DNA of 64,000 nucleotides from Arthrobacter sp. B6. GTDB taxonomy: Bacteria > Actinomycetota > Actinomycetes > Actinomycetales > Micrococcaceae. The notes below the pieces were generated by a model. That model saw only the letters and a list, made by a program, of their open reading frames with translations. It was not told where the DNA came from and did no database searches. How positions within the stretch are numbered: position 1 is the stretch's first letter; every line of letters starts with the position of its first letter. Below, piece after piece: positions 11,291 through 62,269 of this stretch. Location of the stretch: contig NZ_KV467168.1 in assembly GCF_001663775.1 (NCBI RefSeq), positions 1,524,870-1,588,869 of the forward strand. Reading direction: 5' to 3'. The translations under genes were made by a program, and so were the position numbers.

Positions 11291-11355
11291 GGAGTTTTTG
11301 TCCACTTACGGCGACTTTCAGCCACTTAAACTCGCCGTAAGTGGACATAAACTCC
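11291..11355. repeat. Long intergenic palindrome, family A copy 1
   Basis: Arms of 24 bases (11291-11314 and 11332-11355) beginning GGAGTTTTTGTCCACTTACG, with one mismatch. It shares its outer half, GAGTTTTTGTCCA, with the palindromes at 42887 and 55682 but has a different inner stem. It sits downstream of the phosphatase gene and upstream of pcrA, so transcription termination is the simplest role. Confidence 0.85.
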
Positions 11356-14701: not shown

Positions 14702-14750
14702 GTCGCAGCAGGTGTCGTTTTGACGGCTAAAACGACACCTGCTGCTACTT
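14696..14750. repeat. Long intergenic palindrome, family B copy 1
   Basis: A perfect 17-bp stem, GCAGCAGGTGTCGTTTT (14705-14721) with its complement at 14729-14745, extended by AAGTAG/CTACTT at the ends. The same arm recurs at 49428-49477. It lies between the convergent Nudix and ABC transporter genes and probably terminates both transcripts. Confidence 0.85.
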
Positions 14751-29178: not shown

Positions 29179-29197
29179 GAAGGTAGCCTCTCCCAAT

Positions 29198-29340
29198 GCC
29201 TACGAGGTGAGCTGTCGGATTCGGATGGGAGTGCACCCGGCCACATCGCTTCCTGGGAAGCTTTGTGACTTAACCCCAAGGCCTCCAAACTTCGAAGGCC
29301 AAAATTGGTTCCCCCGCCCCTGCCAGACGATGTGATGCGA
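29198..29340 (-). promoter_or_regulatory. c-di-AMP riboswitch (ydaO/yuaA type)
   Basis: Reading the minus strand, the conserved blocks occur in order: GGCAGGGGCGGGGGAACCAA, GGCCTTGGGGTTAAGTC, and CCGAATCCGACAGCTCACC, ending ten bases or so before the hydrolase ribosome site. This block order is the ydaO signature. Known members are OFF switches for wall hydrolase, rpf and potassium genes. The near-identical element at 30338-30522 supports the call. Confidence 0.9.
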
Positions 29341-29383
29341 ACGGACCTTGAGCGGTGGCAGAGCTAGGCAATCCACTCAAGAA

Positions 29384-30317: not shown

Positions 30318-30337
30318 GAACGGTTCCTCTCTGGAAA

Positions 30338-30522
30338 GCCTGCGAAGTTAGCTGTCGGATTCGGGTCAGAGAGTTCAAAGACCCGGTCCGCCGTAAGCAA
30401 GCTTCGGCGCAGAGATATCCCGTGAGGATCCTTCGCTGGAAGAGGCTTGCTGCTGACGGACTTCACCCCAAGGCAGCCTTGCGACTGCCGGTTGTGGTTC
30501 CCCCGCCTCTGCCAGTTGGTGA
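30338..30522 (-). promoter_or_regulatory. c-di-AMP riboswitch (ydaO/yuaA type)
   Basis: Minus-strand blocks: GGCAGAGGCGGGGGAACCAC, TGCCTTGGGGTGAAGTCC, a variable stem region of about 90 bases, and CCGAATCCGACAGCTAAC just ahead of the M23 ribosome site. Same core as the element at 29198-29340 but with a longer variable region. Expected to switch the downstream peptidase off when c-di-AMP is high. Confidence 0.92.
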
Positions 30523-30594
30523 CTCGCATACCCAATCTGCTGGCAGAGCTCGGCTCCAGATCAGGTAACGCTTTTGTATCGACGCTTGGGGTTA

Positions 30595-42876: not shown

Positions 42877-42886
42877 GCCCCCCTTT

Positions 42887-42949
42887 GAGTTTTTGTCCAG
42901 ATAAGGTGACTTCCCACCCGGGAAAGTCCCCTTATCTGGACAAAAACTC
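42887..42949. repeat. Long intergenic palindrome, family A copy 2
   Basis: Perfect 20-bp arms: GAGTTTTTGTCCAGATAAGG (42887-42906) and its complement (42930-42949), with further pairing inside (GACTT/AAGTC). Shares arms with the copies at 11291 and 55682. Lies between the pseudogene and the convergent groEL. Confidence 0.9.
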
Positions 42950-42971
42950 GCCCGAAAAGCCAGCGCACAAA

Positions 42972-48517: not shown

Positions 48518-49359
48518 TGAGCACAGTTCCCGCCGCCACCAGCGCCACCAAGAAGACCCGCCCACAGGTCAATCTCGCCGTGATCCGCCGCGAACAGCTG
48601 TCGCCGCACATGGTCAGGATCGTTGCCGGCGGCGACGGCTTCGCCGATTACGTCAACAATGACTTTGTTGACCGCTACGTGAAGATCGTGTTTCCCCAGT
48701 CCGGTGTCGATTACGCCCGGCCGCTGGACCTGTGGACCATCCGGGAGACAATGCCCCGGGAGCAGTGGCCCTTCACACGGACCTACACCGTCCGGTGGGT
48801 GGACCCCGTGGCACGGGAACTGGCCATCGATTTCGTGATCCACGGAGATGAGGGACTGGCCGGCCCGTGGGCTGCATCGGCCCAGCCCGGCGACCCGCTG
48901 ACCTTCACCGGTCCAGGCGGCGCCTACAACCCCGCGCCCGACGCCGACTGGTACCTTTTTGCCGGCGATGAGGCAGCCCTGCCAGCCATCGCCGCCTCGC
49001 TGGAGTCGCTGCCGCCGGAGGCGAAGGGCGTCGCCTTCCTCGAGGTGGACAGCGACGCCGACATCCAGCCTGTCGCAGCCCCGGCCGGCGTGGAGCTCAC
49101 CTGGCTCCGGCGCAACGGCGTTCCCGCGGGCACCGGCGATCTGCTGGTGTCGGCCGTCGCGAACGCCGACTGGCCTGCCGCCGGCAAGATCGACGTCTTT
49201 GCCCACGGCGAGCGCGGCTACATGAAGGGCCTGCGCGACGTGTTTTTTGTCCAGAAGGGCCTCGACCGCAAGAACGTGTCGCTGTCCGGTTATTGGGCCG
49301 CGGGGAGGGTCGAGGACGACTTCCAAGCCGAGAAGAAGCTGCCCGTAGGGCAAATCTGA
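48517..49359 (+). CDS. Siderophore-interacting protein (flavin reductase)
   Basis: 280 residues. FAD-binding SIP family: RTYTVRWVDP (FAD loop), FVIHGDEGLAGPWAASAQPGD, LFAGDEAALPAIA and the C-terminal GYWAAGRVEDDF. Releases iron from ferric siderophores by reduction using NAD(P)H in the cytosol. ATG at 48517 sits on the iron box, so expression should rise under iron starvation. The 3' end of the coding sequence forms the first unit of the tandem repeat at 49348. Confidence 0.95.
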   Translation: MSTVPAATSATKKTRPQVNLAVIRREQLSPHMVRIVAGGDGFADYVNNDFVDRYVKIVFPQSGVDYARPLDLWTIRETMPREQWPFTRTYTVRWVDPVARELAIDFVIHGDEGLAGPWAASAQPGDPLTFTGPGGAYNPAPDADWYLFAGDEAALPAIAASLESLPPEAKGVAFLEVDSDADIQPVAAPAGVELTWLRRNGVPAGTGDLLVSAVANADWPAAGKIDVFAHGERGYMKGLRDVFFVQKGLDRKNVSLSGYWAAGRVEDDFQAEKKLPVGQI

Positions 49360-49429
49360 CCGGCAAATCTGGCCGGGCAAATCTGACCGGGCAAATCCGA
49401 CCGGGCAAATCCGACCGGGCAAATCCAGG
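49348..49429 (+). repeat. 14-nt tandem repeat at the 3' end of the siderophore gene
   Basis: About six units of GGGCAAATCTGACC, with changes CTG to CCG and one 13-base unit, run from the last codons (Gly-Gln-Ile-stop) of the siderophore-interacting gene to the next palindrome. The first unit carries the stop codon. It looks like slipped-strand expansion of the gene end. Confidence 0.85.
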
Positions 49430-49477
49430 TAGCAGCAGGTGTCGTTCTGGGCGATCATAACGACACTTACTGCTACC
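49428..49477. repeat. Long intergenic palindrome, family B copy 2
   Basis: Arms GGTAGCAGCAGGTGTCGTT (49428-49446) and its near complement (49459-49477), two differences that keep G-U pairing possible. Matches the copy at 14696-14750. Between convergent siderophore-interacting and ThrE-type genes. Confidence 0.85.
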
Positions 49478-55681: not shown

Positions 55682-55746
55682 GGAGTTTTTGTCCAGATAC
55701 AGGGACTTAAAGGTCCTCCAACCCCCATTATCTGGACAAAAACTCC
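55682..55746. repeat. Long intergenic palindrome, family A copy 3
   Basis: Perfect 18-bp arms GGAGTTTTTGTCCAGATA (55682-55699) and complement (55729-55746). Lies downstream of glyA and upstream of sdaA on the same strand, so it may be a partial terminator that lowers sdaA expression relative to the gcv genes. Confidence 0.88.
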
Positions 55747-57076: not shown

Positions 57077-57080
<4 letters not shown>

Positions 57081-57460
57081 AGCTCGCCGCCATTCTTGGA
57101 CGCGTAGTCCTGGGCGGAGAGCAGCGGTCCATCGGAGTCGGCGGCCACCTTAAACAGCCAGCCGGCGCCGTAGGGATCGCTGTTGATCAGTGCTGGGTCC
57201 TCGACCACGGCCGGGTTGGTCTCGGTGACTTCACCCGTCACCGGGGAGTAGAGGTCGGAGACGGACTTGGTGGACTCCACCTCGCCGCAGGTCTCACCGG
57301 CCGTCACGGTCGAGCCGACCTCGGGCAGGTCCACGTACACAATGTCGCCAAGGGCGTCCGTGGCCACGGCGGAAATGCCGATGGACACAAGGTTCCCATC
57401 CTCACGGGCCACCCACTCGTGCTCGTCGGAGTACTGCAGTTCAGGGGCAACTTTTGCCAT
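57077..57460 (-). CDS. gcvH: Glycine cleavage system H protein
   Basis: 127 residues. Carries the lipoyl arm on K65 in [15 protein letters not shown], moving the aminomethyl group between P, T and L proteins. Normal length. ATG at 57460 preceded by AAGGAAAA. It is separated from gcvT by a 346-base gap full of repeats, yet overlaps glyA by four bases, so its expression may be set partly by that gap. Confidence 0.98.
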
Positions 57461-57489
57461 GTGCTTTTCCTTAATTTTGTTTGCGAAAA

Positions 57490-57728
57490 GTGAGAGAGCG
57501 TTGGCTCAATCACTGCAGGAAGTGAGAGAGCGTTGGCTCAATCACTGCAGGAAGTGAGAGAGCGTTGGCTCAATCACTGCAGGAAGTGAGAGAGCGTTGG
57601 CTCAATCACTGCAGGAAGTGAGAGAGCGTTGGCTCAATCACTGCAGGAAGTGAGAGAGCGTTGGCTCAATCACTGCAGGAAGTGAGAGAGCGTTGGCTCA
57701 ATCACTGCAGGAAGTGAGAGAGCGTTGG
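57490..57728 (-). repeat. 32-nt tandem repeat array between gcvT and gcvH
   Basis: Seven identical copies of a 32-base unit beginning GTGAGAGAGCGTTGG on the plus strand, at 57490, 57522, 57554, 57586, 57618, 57650 and 57682, then a 15-base partial copy at 57714. In the operon RNA each unit can fold as AGUGA-UU-GAG, loop CCAACGCU, CUC-UCACU. No spacers, so not CRISPR. The gap has no coding potential on the operon strand; 32 is not a multiple of three. Its end merges with the palindrome at 57722-57796. Confidence 0.97.
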
Positions 57729-57796
57729 GGCTGGGATCCGGCAGCGTGCGTCAGAGCGACGAAGGGGCAGCACGCAGAGGATCTCAGGCCCAACGC
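57722..57796 (-). repeat. 75-nt imperfect palindrome joined to the tandem repeats
   Basis: GCGTTGGGGCTGGGATCC (57722-57739) pairs with GGATCTCAGGCCCAACGC (57779-57796) at 16 of 18 positions, with inner GCGTGC/GCACGC pairing. It starts 11 bases past the gcvT stop and its outer arm contains the GCGTTGG of the last repeat unit. It may be the original element from which the tandem repeats grew, or a processing or termination structure. Confidence 0.75.
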
Positions 57797-57806
57797 AACC
57801 CGAAAA

Positions 57807-58955
57807 CTATTTTTGGCGCTTGTAGAACGGGAGTGCCACGACTTCGAATGGCTCCGTCTTTCCGCGGAGGTCGATGTCCAGGGCGGTGCCGGCTTCGGTG
57901 TACGCGACGTCGACGTAGGCCAGTGCCACCGGGTAGCCGAGGCTGGGCGAGGGCTGGCCGGAGGTGACTTCACCGACGACGGCGCCGTCCTTGAGGACCG
58001 GGTAGTGGCCCCGGCCGGCACGGCGTCCGAGGCCTTTGAGGCCTACGAGCCTGCGGCCGGAGGTGTCGCCGGCGCCCGCTTCCTTTTTGGCGGCGAGCGC
58101 CGCCTTGCCCACGAAGTCGCCTTCCTTGGAGAGCGCGACGACGGGTCCCAGGCCGGCGGCGAACGGGTCGCCTTCCAGGGAGAGTTCGTTGCCGTACAGC
58201 GGCATGCCGGCTTCGAGGCGGAGGGAGTCGCGGCAGGCAAGGCCGGCAGGTACCAGTTCCCCTTCATCCGCGATAGCCACGATGGCCTGCCAGAGTGCCG
58301 GGGCGTCTTCGTTGGCCACAAAGATTTCGAAGCCGTCCTCGCCGGTGTAACCCGTGCGGGCCAGCAGAAGCTCCTGGCCGGCTCCGGCCACGAGGAAGGG
58401 AACCTCGACGGCGGCGTAGTACTTGAGCCCGGTGACCAGGCTGTGCTGGGCGGCGGGGACCAGGCGGAGAAGGATTTCCTCCGCTTTGGGGCCCTGGACG
58501 GCGATGAGTGACGTCTCGGCGGAGGCATCGTCCACCACGACGTCAAAGCCGGCCGCACGCCGGACAAGTTCAGCTGCGACCGTCTTGGCGTTGCCGGCGT
58601 TGGGGACCACCAGGAAGCGGTCCGTGCCATCTTCAGCAACTGGACGGCGGTACATGATGAGGTCGTCGATGATGCCGCCGTCCTCGTTGCAGATCAGCGA
58701 GTACTTGGCCTTGCCCACGGGCATCGCGGAAATCCTGCCCACCAGCGCGTAGTCCAGGAACGCGCCGGCGTCCGGGCCGGTCACCCATACTTCGCCCATG
58801 TGGGACAGATCGAAGATGCCTGCGGCCTTGCGGACGGCGTGGTGCTCGGCCAGCTCCGAGCTGTACTTGAGCGGCATCTGCCAGCCACCGAAATCGGTGA
58901 ACGAGGCGCCGAGTTTCTTGTGCTCTTCGTAAAGGGCTGTGTAGTTCTCAGTCAT
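57807..58955 (-). CDS. gcvT: Glycine cleavage system T protein (aminomethyltransferase)
   Basis: 382 residues from ATG 58955, with AAGGA seven bases upstream; an in-frame start ten bases into gcvP is rejected. Transfers the methylene of glycine to tetrahydrofolate. FTDFGGWQMPLKYSSELAEH, GIFDLSHMGEVWVTGPDA and GYTGEDGFEIFV are hallmark segments. Begins ten bases after gcvP stops. Confidence 0.98.
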   Translation of the reverse strand: MTENYTALYEEHKKLGASFTDFGGWQMPLKYSSELAEHHAVRKAAGIFDLSHMGEVWVTGPDAGAFLDYALVGRISAMPVGKAKYSLICNEDGGIIDDLIMYRRPVAEDGTDRFLVVPNAGNAKTVAAELVRRAAGFDVVVDDASAETSLIAVQGPKAEEILLRLVPAAQHSLVTGLKYYAAVEVPFLVAGAGQELLLARTGYTGEDGFEIFVANEDAPALWQAIVAIADEGELVPAGLACRDSLRLEAGMPLYGNELSLEGDPFAAGLGPVVALSKEGDFVGKAALAAKKEAGAGDTSGRRLVGLKGLGRRAGRGHYPVLKDGAVVGEVTSGQPSPSLGYPVALAYVDVAYTEAGTALDIDLRGKTEPFEVVALPFYKRQK

Positions 58956-58965
58956 CGAAAAATCC

Positions 58966-61854
<2,889 letters not shown>

Positions 61855-61904
61855 AAGGAACTCCATAACTCAGGCGGCGCAGGGTGCGCCACATCGATTC
61901 GGGT

Positions 61905-62140
61905 TCCTCCCCGCTCTGTATTGGACCTGAGAGTTTCCACGTGGGCCGCTGCTGCGGAACCGCGCTTGCACCTTCGGTGAGCGGGCAGTCCTGGCGTTCC
62001 GGAGTGCGGGACACCCCAGGCGGACAGCCTGCTACTTTCCAGAGTTGCCTCGCCGCGGCGGTACGTGGGCCTGAGAGATTCCTGGGGAGGGTTTGCTCCT
62101 ACGGCGCCTGCTGTACCTACTAGCAGAACTCTCCCGCCGC
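61905..62140 (-). promoter_or_regulatory. Tandem glycine riboswitch
   Basis: Two aptamers in series on the minus strand. First: GCGGGAGAG (from about 62137), GCGCCGTAGGAGCAAAC, AATCTCTCAGG, ending in TAC. Second: AACTCTGGAAAG, CACCGAAGGTGCAAGCG, AAACTCTCAGGTCC. These are the class signature. Glycine binding is known to switch such gcv operons on. Ends about 50 bases before the gcvP start. The 130 bases upstream, to the TetR stop, give no clear promoter to my eye. Confidence 0.95.
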
Positions 62141-62269
62141 AGATCAAAGGCTTATTCAATTGGGATACACATTTTGGGTGGCCGGTGACAGCCATCACCA
62201 ATTGTCCTATGCCGCAGGCTTTCGGGCAAATGGGACGGCACGCATGGGCAGGATCAGCTACGTGGCCGC

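What the first reader, a model, noticed from the sequence alone, without database searches (positions are those of the whole stretch)
57490..57728. Tandem 32-nt repeats inside the glycine-cleavage operon
Seven identical 32-base units and a partial eighth fill most of the 346-base gap between gcvT and gcvH, while the neighbouring operon joints are a 10-base gap and a 4-base overlap. Each unit can form a stem-loop in the operon RNA, so the message would carry about eight hairpins. Possible roles: differential control of gcvH-glyA relative to gcvPT, RNA stability or processing, or a protein-binding platform. Perfect identity suggests recent expansion and strain-to-strain variation in copy number. 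I know of no such element described for gcv operons.
Basis: partly seen in the sequence, partly recalled or inferred. Interest (0 to 1): 0.8.

Follow-up and report, generated by a model that had tools for sequence, protein, structure and literature searches.

The report
Nuclease-paired dispersed DNA repeat arrays
The eight tandem repeats inside this glycine-cleavage operon are one copy of a repeat family scattered between genes across the whole genome, and the family appears to be paired with a single gene for a DNA-binding, DNA-cutting protein that is itself bounded by the same repeats.

Summary
The array is real: 7.5 identical 32-bp units at 57488-57728. It is not gcv-specific. Its core, searched as GTGAGAGAGSG, has 79 copies in this genome, and core pairs 32 bp apart occur in 116 of 198 genus genomes. 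Same-strand steps are 32 bp in 179 of 193, and opposed copies are helically phased. A gene for an AbiEi-like protein fused to a Vsr/EDxHD-type nuclease domain (DUF559) is bounded by such arrays: its flanks share an inverted core in 44 of 49 loci, against 0 of 192 control genes. In nine genomes with almost none of this core the DUF559 flanks carry other cores; in four of them the listed dispersed arrays match, one is mixed, the rest were not resolved. Flanking repeats also pointed to dispersed families for a homologue in another family and for a second paralogue here. Best reading: a REP/RAYT-like repeat system with an unrelated cognate nuclease. Binding, cutting and effects on gcv are untested.

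The parts
57488..57728 (-). 7.5 identical 32-bp units (8 cores). On the operon's mRNA strand the core reads CGCTCTCTCAC; on the + strand GTGAGAGAGCG
57734..57785 (.). Second repeat-like element in the same gap: GC-rich imperfect palindrome between gcvT and the array; similar sequences stand in the gcvT-gcvH gaps of several relatives
   Evidence: sequence; relatives. An 18-base stretch taken from relatives matches here with 1 mismatch and in held own-genome stretches twice (0 and 3 mismatches), reversed control 1, so its status as a family in this genome is weak
57077..57460 (-). gcvH, downstream of the array
   Evidence: query
57807..58955 (-). gcvT, upstream of the array
58966..61866 (-). gcvP
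62049..62146 (-). Glycine riboswitch (RF00504) upstream of gcvP, a known kind of control element of gcv operons
55682..55746 (.). Inverted pair of a different repeat (GGAGTTTTTGTCCAG, arms 50 bp apart) between glyA and sdaA; its family flanks another DUF559 paralogue of this genome

Best explanation
The gcv array is a locally expanded copy of a dispersed repeat family that works as a phased array of DNA-binding sites for a cognate protein encoded elsewhere in the genome (G000 C2:868414-869373): an N-terminal AbiEi-like region (residues about 1-200) fused to a C-terminal Vsr/EDxHD-type nuclease domain (Pfam DUF559). Shown: the arrays, their period and phasing, their preference for gene 3' ends, the arrays bounding the DUF559 gene, and the agreement between the type of core at DUF559 flanks and the type dispersed in the genome for most genomes examined. 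Inferred: the protein binds the core cooperatively along one face of the helix; it nicks or cuts array DNA; repair from other arrays copies, homogenises and expands the units, as RAYTs are proposed to do for REPINs. At gcv the likely consequence is incidental: a recent 8-unit expansion in a tolerated site behind gcvT, which may mildly alter read-through into gcvH-glyA. My odds: cognate pairing 0.8, protein binds the core 0.72, nuclease-driven copying 0.4. The first two, and the overall figure, were lowered slightly after rechecking.
For: Flanks of DUF559 genes carry repeats at 31-33 or 63-65 bp on both sides in 45 of 49 loci and share an inverted 8-mer core in 44 of 49; among 192 control genes 2 and 0. 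Of 49 genomes with a DUF559 locus read, the 40 whose flanks carry GTGAGAGAGCG-type cores have 14-84 genome-wide pairs of that core, and the 9 with other flank cores have 0 (eight) or 2 (one). In G071, G184, G050 and G012 the listed alternative-core pairs (26, 32, 12; 137 counted, part listed) are nearly all of the flank's type, against 0, 0, 1 and 1 pairs in four GTGAGAGAGCG genomes, reversed controls 0. A homologue of 35% identity in another family is flanked by 51-bp arrays; that core has 66 places in its genome and 4, 1, 0 and 1 in four others. The four other DUF559 genes here found at E 1e-10 or better are each flanked by their own distinct repeat; one of these has 123 places, reversed control 0. 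Opposed cores: R 0.79 at 10.67 bp for 48 distances; 22 unique values R 0.56, p 0.00065. Model pLDDT 91: residues 204-307 match I-Bth0305I Z 11.6 and Vsr Z 9.4; residues 3-199 match AbiEi antitoxin Z 11.3. E207, D239, H256, D265 are invariant in 52 aligned sequences.
Against: No binding, cutting or mobility was observed. DUF559 homologues occur in 197 of 198 genomes searched, usually in several copies, so presence alone does not discriminate. In G001 only 3 of 13 alternative-core pairs have the flank's core (one of them at the gene itself); the other 10 are of the GTGATGGSGCG type. For G035 (48 pairs) and G073 (3) no places were listed; the pattern could not match the flank cores of G018 (0 pairs), G073 and G192 (5 pairs, of another core), so these are untested. 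The counts include pairs at the DUF559 gene itself (for example 3 of 12 in G050, 4 of 32 in G184, 6 of 26 in G071). Five of 49 loci failed the flank test, and I chose part of the loci by their array counts. Beyond the genus only some homologues show clear flanking repeats. Core and protein could covary by common descent alone. Shared positions of many arrays suggest vertical retention more than active movement.
Confidence: 0.69

Rival explanations
1. Host-serving chromosome elements: the arrays are phased sites for a structural or boundary protein at gene 3' ends (roadblock termination, supercoil control, nucleoid organisation, like BIMEs), and the DUF559 protein is a domesticated binder rather than a mover.
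For: Of 102 array ends within 60 nt of a called gene, 86 face its 3' end; cores next to a gene 3' end point toward it in 106 of 129 cases. Single-arm arrays point at a gene 3' end in 39 of 51, p 0.0002. At least six loci are shared by three divergent genomes, several with cores kept and spacers replaced. Helical phasing.
Against: The catalytic-type residues are invariant in 52 sequences, which a pure binder would not need. Arrays also sit inside the gcv operon, and 7 clusters lie between divergent genes. The simple scan found no promoter or terminator signal on the operon strand of the gcv gap.
Confidence: 0.3
2. One reading: an element of the gcv operon that sets gcvH-glyA expression apart from gcvPT through RNA hairpins or processing.
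For: The unit folds well (z -2.9); the gap interrupts an otherwise tight operon; arrays recur at the gcvT-gcvH joint in 15 of 80 gcvH loci.
Against: Other units of the family show no folding signal; the core is at many unrelated sites; the 39 loci whose gcvH is closest to this one (L038-L076, 87-95%) have no core in the gap.
Confidence: 0.08
3. The arrays are remains of a transposon's ends (MITE-like) and DUF559 is cargo.
For: Left and right arms are inverted around the gene; a DDE insertion sequence of about 1515 bp lies between array parts at three places.
Against: The insertion sequence is a separate element that interrupts arrays; arm number and central spacing vary in helical steps instead of showing fixed ends; the association is with DUF559 across genomes with different cores.
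Confidence: 0.1
4. The arrays are part of a defence or toxin-antitoxin system, the AbiEi-like protein regulating or cutting at the repeats when foreign DNA enters.
For: PADLOC AbiEi match E 8.5e-12 on residues 16-141; AbiEi structural match Z 11.3.
Against: Dispersed arrays at dozens of chromosomal sites are not expected of an autoregulated toxin-antitoxin operon (inference); a partner toxin was not looked for.
Confidence: 0.07

Closest known systems
REP/REPIN repeats with REP-associated tyrosine transposases (RAYTs); PMC3116915, abstract and outline seen
   Same: Many short intergenic repeats, inverted doublets, a cognate DNA-processing gene near or bounded by the same repeats
   Different: RAYT-type family PF01797 found in 2 of 198 genomes and not in this one. 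The unit is not palindromic and comes in 32-bp phased tandem arrays. The partner is a Vsr/EDxHD-like nuclease with an AbiEi-like domain
EDxHD homing endonucleases (I-Bth0305I; PMC3943268, passages seen) and Vsr repair endonuclease
   Same: Fold of the C-terminal domain (Z 11.6 and 9.4), invariant E, D, H, D in that order; I-Bth0305I is described there as dimerising on a target of nearly 60 bp
   Different: Not seen in an intron; paired with dispersed repeat arrays; different DNA-binding part
AbiEi antitoxin of AbiE type IV systems (PMC7319586, start of abstract seen in a search listing)
   Same: Fold of residues 3-199; AbiEi of S. agalactiae binds inverted repeats cooperatively according to that abstract
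   Different: Here fused to a nuclease domain; dozens of candidate sites across the genome
Glycine riboswitch of gcv operons (RF00504)
   Same: Present upstream of the same operon at 62049-62146
   Different: Unrelated in sequence and position to the array

Membership tests
REP/REPIN-RAYT | Cognate Y1 (HUH) tyrosine transposase gene | tested here: not met
   PF01797 in 2 of 198 genus genomes (1 over the cut-off), none in G000; the control search rings in 5 of 14 known genomes
REP/REPIN-RAYT | Palindromic (hairpin-forming) repeat unit | tested here: not met
   Mean z -0.21, 0.09, -0.06 for single units with RNA energy parameters; inverted doublets of units do exist
REP/REPIN-RAYT | Dispersed intergenic repeats in many copies | tested here: met
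   79 copies in G000; pairs in 116 of 198 genomes, this one included; 93 of 101 clusters with no core inside a called gene
REP/REPIN-RAYT | Cognate gene bounded by the same repeats | tested here: met
   Inverted shared core in 44 of 49 DUF559 loci, 0 of 192 control genes; met for an unrelated gene, not for a RAYT
EDxHD/Vsr-like nuclease | Fold of the catalytic domain | tested here: met
   3r3p Z 11.6 rmsd 2.4 over 95 residues; 1cw0 Z 9.4 rmsd 2.8 over 100; Pfam DUF559 matches 35 of 52 members at E 0.01. Foldseek alone gave no E under 0.001
EDxHD/Vsr-like nuclease | Catalytic E, D, H, D residues | tested here: inconclusive
   E207, D239, H256, D265 invariant in 52 sequences; their equation with the namesake motif rests on order only, not on a superposed active site
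EDxHD/Vsr-like nuclease | Sequence-specific DNA cleavage and homing | not testable with these tools
   needs biochemistry
AbiE type IV toxin-antitoxin | AbiEi-type fold | tested here: met
   6y8q Z 11.3 rmsd 5.5 over 177 residues; PADLOC AbiEi E 8.5e-12; Pfam AbiEi_4 matches only 2 of 52 members
AbiE type IV toxin-antitoxin | Adjacent AbiEii nucleotidyltransferase toxin gene | not tested
   neighbours were not searched for it
CRISPR array | cas genes nearby and unique long spacers | not tested
   no cas search was made; spacers are 21 bp and share an A/T tract
MITE | Fixed terminal inverted repeats and target duplications | not tested
   filled and empty sites were not compared systematically

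The most novel reading that the evidence does not exclude
A large class of repeat-nuclease pairs in Actinobacteria: each DUF559 protein of this AbiEi-Vsr type owns a genome-specific family of helically phased or inverted repeats dispersed at gene 3' ends, cuts or nicks them, and thereby copies and homogenises them. One genome carries several such pairs side by side (five DUF559 genes found here, five different flanking repeats), and protein and repeat sequence co-evolve. The gcv array is one fresh expansion of one family.
Probability: 0.43. Interest if true: 0.93.

Novelty: categorically new. Interest (0 to 1): 0.85.

Why it matters
It would give a common orphan protein family of unknown function (DUF559 with an AbiEi-like front part) a testable role, and give a widespread class of intergenic repeats a cognate protein. 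It would show a second, unrelated enzyme solution to what REPs and RAYTs do, with co-varying pairs ready for recognition-code studies, and make the old question of why bacteria keep extragenic repeats directly testable in harmless soil bacteria. It also warns against reading such arrays in operons as local regulators.

Tried and rejected
Gcv-specific hairpin regulator: rejected as the main reading, because the hairpin is absent from the family and the core is genome-wide.

REP/RAYT membership: rejected, PF01797 in 2 of 198 genomes and not in this one.

Rho utilisation site (C-rich mRNA strand): considered from the sequence only; the 32-bp spacing and helical phasing of opposed copies argue for double-stranded DNA; not tested.

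Own promoter for gcvH: the sigma-70-type scan of 57300-57900 found none, and one terminator-like site only on the strand opposite to the operon.

Literature: the core strings gave 12 papers, none on this repeat going by the listing; DUF559 gave 14, none on repeats going by the listing and by the passages seen of PMC12907096; Arthrobacter with extragenic repeats, AbiEi/Vsr/DUF559/Arthrobacter, RAYT with Actinobacteria, EDxHD or I-Bth0305I, Vsr-like with tandem repeats, and AbiEi with inverted repeats gave no report of this pairing in the rows listed (some lists were cut). One passage of RepRanger (PMC12306157) has Arthrobacter livingstonensis in a table; the word DUF559 does not occur in it. 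Only open PMC papers are held, so a prior description elsewhere cannot be excluded.

Plasmid collection: two records of Arthrobacter sp. StoSoilB13 matched at 68-74%; not pursued.

First AlphaFold model (alignment A1) was poor, pLDDT 61; its Foldseek list was superseded. In one search mitoribosomal chains (Z up to 9.9) and nucleotidyltransferases (Z up to 8.0) also appear below the top rows I cite.

Beyond the genus the flank signal is mixed: among L260-L284 I see flanking inverted repeats in L260, L262, L264, L268, L275, L278 and L279, by eye and by shared 10-mers; many of the others are no better than mismatched-pair controls (only L256, L258, L260, L262, L264, L268, L275, L278 and L279 were printed in full).

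bears this out for four genomes, shows a mixed result for G001, and leaves G035, G073, G192 and G018 unresolved; the odds were lowered a little.

Full report
What was checked. The array lies in the gap: TRF 57488-57728, 7.5 copies, 100% matches.

A genome-wide family. The full 32-bp unit (up to 3 mismatches) is found only at this site (7 matches), but its first half is not: AGTGAGAGAGCGTTGG with up to 2 mismatches has 56 places in the genome, reversed control 1, and GTGAGAGAGSG has 79, reversed control 1, which I count as 27 clusters when sites within 250 bp are joined. Of 198 genus genomes, this one included, 116 have at least one pair of cores 32 bp apart (up to 1 mismatch), at most 84, and the reversed pattern gives 0 in every genome.

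Anatomy. In 80 stretches around sites of three genomes (20 own, without the gcv array itself; 38 of G058, whose site list was cut at 100 of 130; 22 of G076, with five places left out) I find 101 clusters; in 93 no core lies inside a called gene (genes called by my own codon-usage script, trained on this window). Same-strand steps under 140 bp are 32 bp in 179 of 193. Opposed copies are almost always back to back (minus left, plus right; one convergent junction). The 48 such distances under 260 bp cluster at 14/15, 24 (22 of 48), 34-36, 45/46, 56, 65/67, 78/79 and 99: R 0.79 at 10.67 bp; with the 22 unique values R 0.56, p 0.00065 against uniform draws; 39 and some distances over 130 are off phase. 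Unit positions 20-21 (the core being 1-11) are A or T in 94-100% of distinct units, as part of an A tract or a T tract. These are properties of a double-stranded DNA site more than of an RNA hairpin. Folding of single units on the mRNA strand gives mean z -0.21, 0.09 and -0.06; the gcv unit stands out (z -2.9).

Location. Of 195 array ends with a called neighbour, 102 lie within 60 nt of it, and 86 of these face its 3' end. Cores next to a 3' end point toward it in 106 of 129 cases. Mixed arrays force part of this orientation, but single-arm arrays also point at a 3' end in 39 of 51, p 0.0002, while their other side faces 3' and 5' ends 21 to 26. At least six loci are shared by the three genomes (for example behind formate-tetrahydrofolate ligase, PEP carboxylase and a PNPOx-family gene; families), several with cores kept and spacers replaced, the arrays not always of the same make-up.

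The gcv joint in relatives. Of 80 gcvH loci, 15 have one to four detected cores between gcvT and gcvH, all in the same orientation and, where there are several, at 32-base steps; 8 of the 15 are labelled Pseudarthrobacter and 7 Arthrobacter sp., and two are from one strain. But the 39 loci with the closest gcvH (87-95%; L038-L076) have no core there, and the 15 with cores have gcvH of 76-80% (gcvT 75-91%). So the joint, not a demonstrably orthologous array, is shared. This is unexplained.

The cognate gene. RAYTs are nearly absent (2 of 198). Looking at genes between neighbouring arrays, a DUF559 protein appeared in two genomes at different loci (family). A search gave homologues in 197 of 198 genomes at E 1e-10. 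Each of the 30 best loci has array cores on one or both sides within the stretch held. Twenty more loci of lower identity (64-74%), chosen to include genomes without GTGAGAGAGCG, also have arrays; in nine of them the cores are others on a similar frame, mostly at 32 bp (31 in one flank of L238): GTGATGGSGCG, GTGAGCGRGCG, GTGAGGGAGCG, GTGAGGGAGGG, CTGAGGGAGCG, GTGGGGAAGSG. De novo test without any core given: repeats at 31-33 or 63-65 bp on both sides in 45 of 49 loci and an inverted shared 8-mer in 44 of 49 (one locus dropped for a short flank; misses L209, L212, L215, L218, L241); 192 control genes give 2 and 0, though 35 and 27 have a repeat on one side. The 50 loci come from 49 genomes: 40 with GTGAGAGAGCG-type flanks all have 14 or more genome-wide pairs of that core, nine with other flanks have 0 or, once, 2. 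The gene stands at three or more different places (behind formate-tetrahydrofolate ligase, between a PucR-type gene and a purU-like gene, and at a third locus), read from flanks; purU is recalled.

Do dispersed cores follow the flank core? With the pattern GTGAKSGVGCG, N21, GTGAKSGVGCG: G071 26, G184 32, G050 12 and G012 137 pairs, those listed being nearly all of the flank's type, including some at the gene itself; G001 13, of which 3 have the flank's core and 10 another; G035 48 and G073 3, places not listed; G192 5, of another core; G018 0. The flank cores of G018, G073 and G192 do not fit the pattern, so they are untested. Four GTGAGAGAGCG genomes give 0, 0, 1 and 1; reversed controls 0.

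Predictions tested. (1) Another family of the order: G330's homologue (35% identity) has 51-bp arrays on both sides; its 16-bp core (up to 2 mismatches) has 66 genome-wide places, against 4, 1, 0 and 1 in the other four genomes, one of which had a reversed control of 2. In 15 stretches, steps of 51-52 bp prevail and 13 clusters lie within 60 nt of a called gene 3' end. (2) The four other DUF559 genes of this genome found at E 1e-10 (33-38% identity) have none of the gcv-type cores within the stretch held, but each has its own repeat on both sides, in inverted or palindromic form. I tested one for dispersal: 123 places (up to 1 mismatch), reversed control 0, most of those listed as inverted pairs about 50 bp apart. 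Three such pairs lie in the window, one between glyA and sdaA of this same operon. The other three repeats were only checked in 220 kb of held sequence: 4, 1 and 5 copies away from the gene.

The protein. AlphaFold with 52 homologues: pLDDT 91.2, pTM 0.87. VIA-align: residues 204-307 match I-Bth0305I (Z 11.6, rmsd 2.4, 95 aligned) and Vsr (Z 9.4, rmsd 2.8, 100 aligned); residues 3-199 match AbiEi antitoxin 6y8q (Z 11.3, rmsd 5.5, 177 aligned). Foldseek alone gave no match under E 0.001. E207, D239, H256 and D265 are among 11 invariant columns. The stop codon of this strain's gene overlaps the first downstream core.

Reading. The arrays behave as REPINs do with RAYTs, but repeat and enzyme are unrelated to those. 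I therefore call the system new in kind while stating that binding and catalysis are inferences and that prior description outside open PMC papers cannot be excluded. At gcv, I expect at most a mild effect on read-through.

Noticed in passing
L121 2829-4343, L128 3145-4659, L136: A DDE (rve) insertion sequence of about 1515 bp, 99.8% identical between L121 and L128, lies between parts of 32-bp arrays at three places (in L121 and L128 within spacers); rve genes also adjoin arrays in G058 (L152, L161, L165). The arrays may be preferred landing sites, but copies elsewhere were not searched.
   Followed up: partly
window 11291-11355, 42886-42950, 55682-55746: Three inverted pairs of GGAGTTTTTGTCCAS-type arms 50 bp apart; 123 places in the genome; flanking repeat of the DUF559 paralogue at C1:3211k.
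   Followed up: yes
window 14702-14748 and 49429-49443: Copies of the GTAGCAGCAGATGTC-like repeat that flanks the DUF559 paralogue at C1:1243k (1-2 mismatches).
   Followed up: partly
upstream of DUF559 genes, e.g. L228, L236-L255: TGTGGATAA (a DnaA-box-like word, recalled) stands 110-115 nt before the end of the upstream stretch examined, near the start of the homology, in 56 of 58 same-genus loci, a few of which are the same gene seen twice; meaning unknown.
   Followed up: partly
L136 296-454 and L287 1270-1380: Repeat CGAACGTACA runs at 42-bp steps in L136 and 32-bp steps upstream of the DUF559 paralogue in L287: again about whole helical turns.
   Followed up: no
window 29183-29356 and 30322-30538: Two c-di-AMP riboswitches (RF00379) on the minus strand about 1 kb apart.
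   Followed up: no
window 49348-49425: Tandem repeat of 14 bp, 5.6 copies, 92% matches, next to a GTAGCAGCAG-type repeat at 49429.
   Followed up: no
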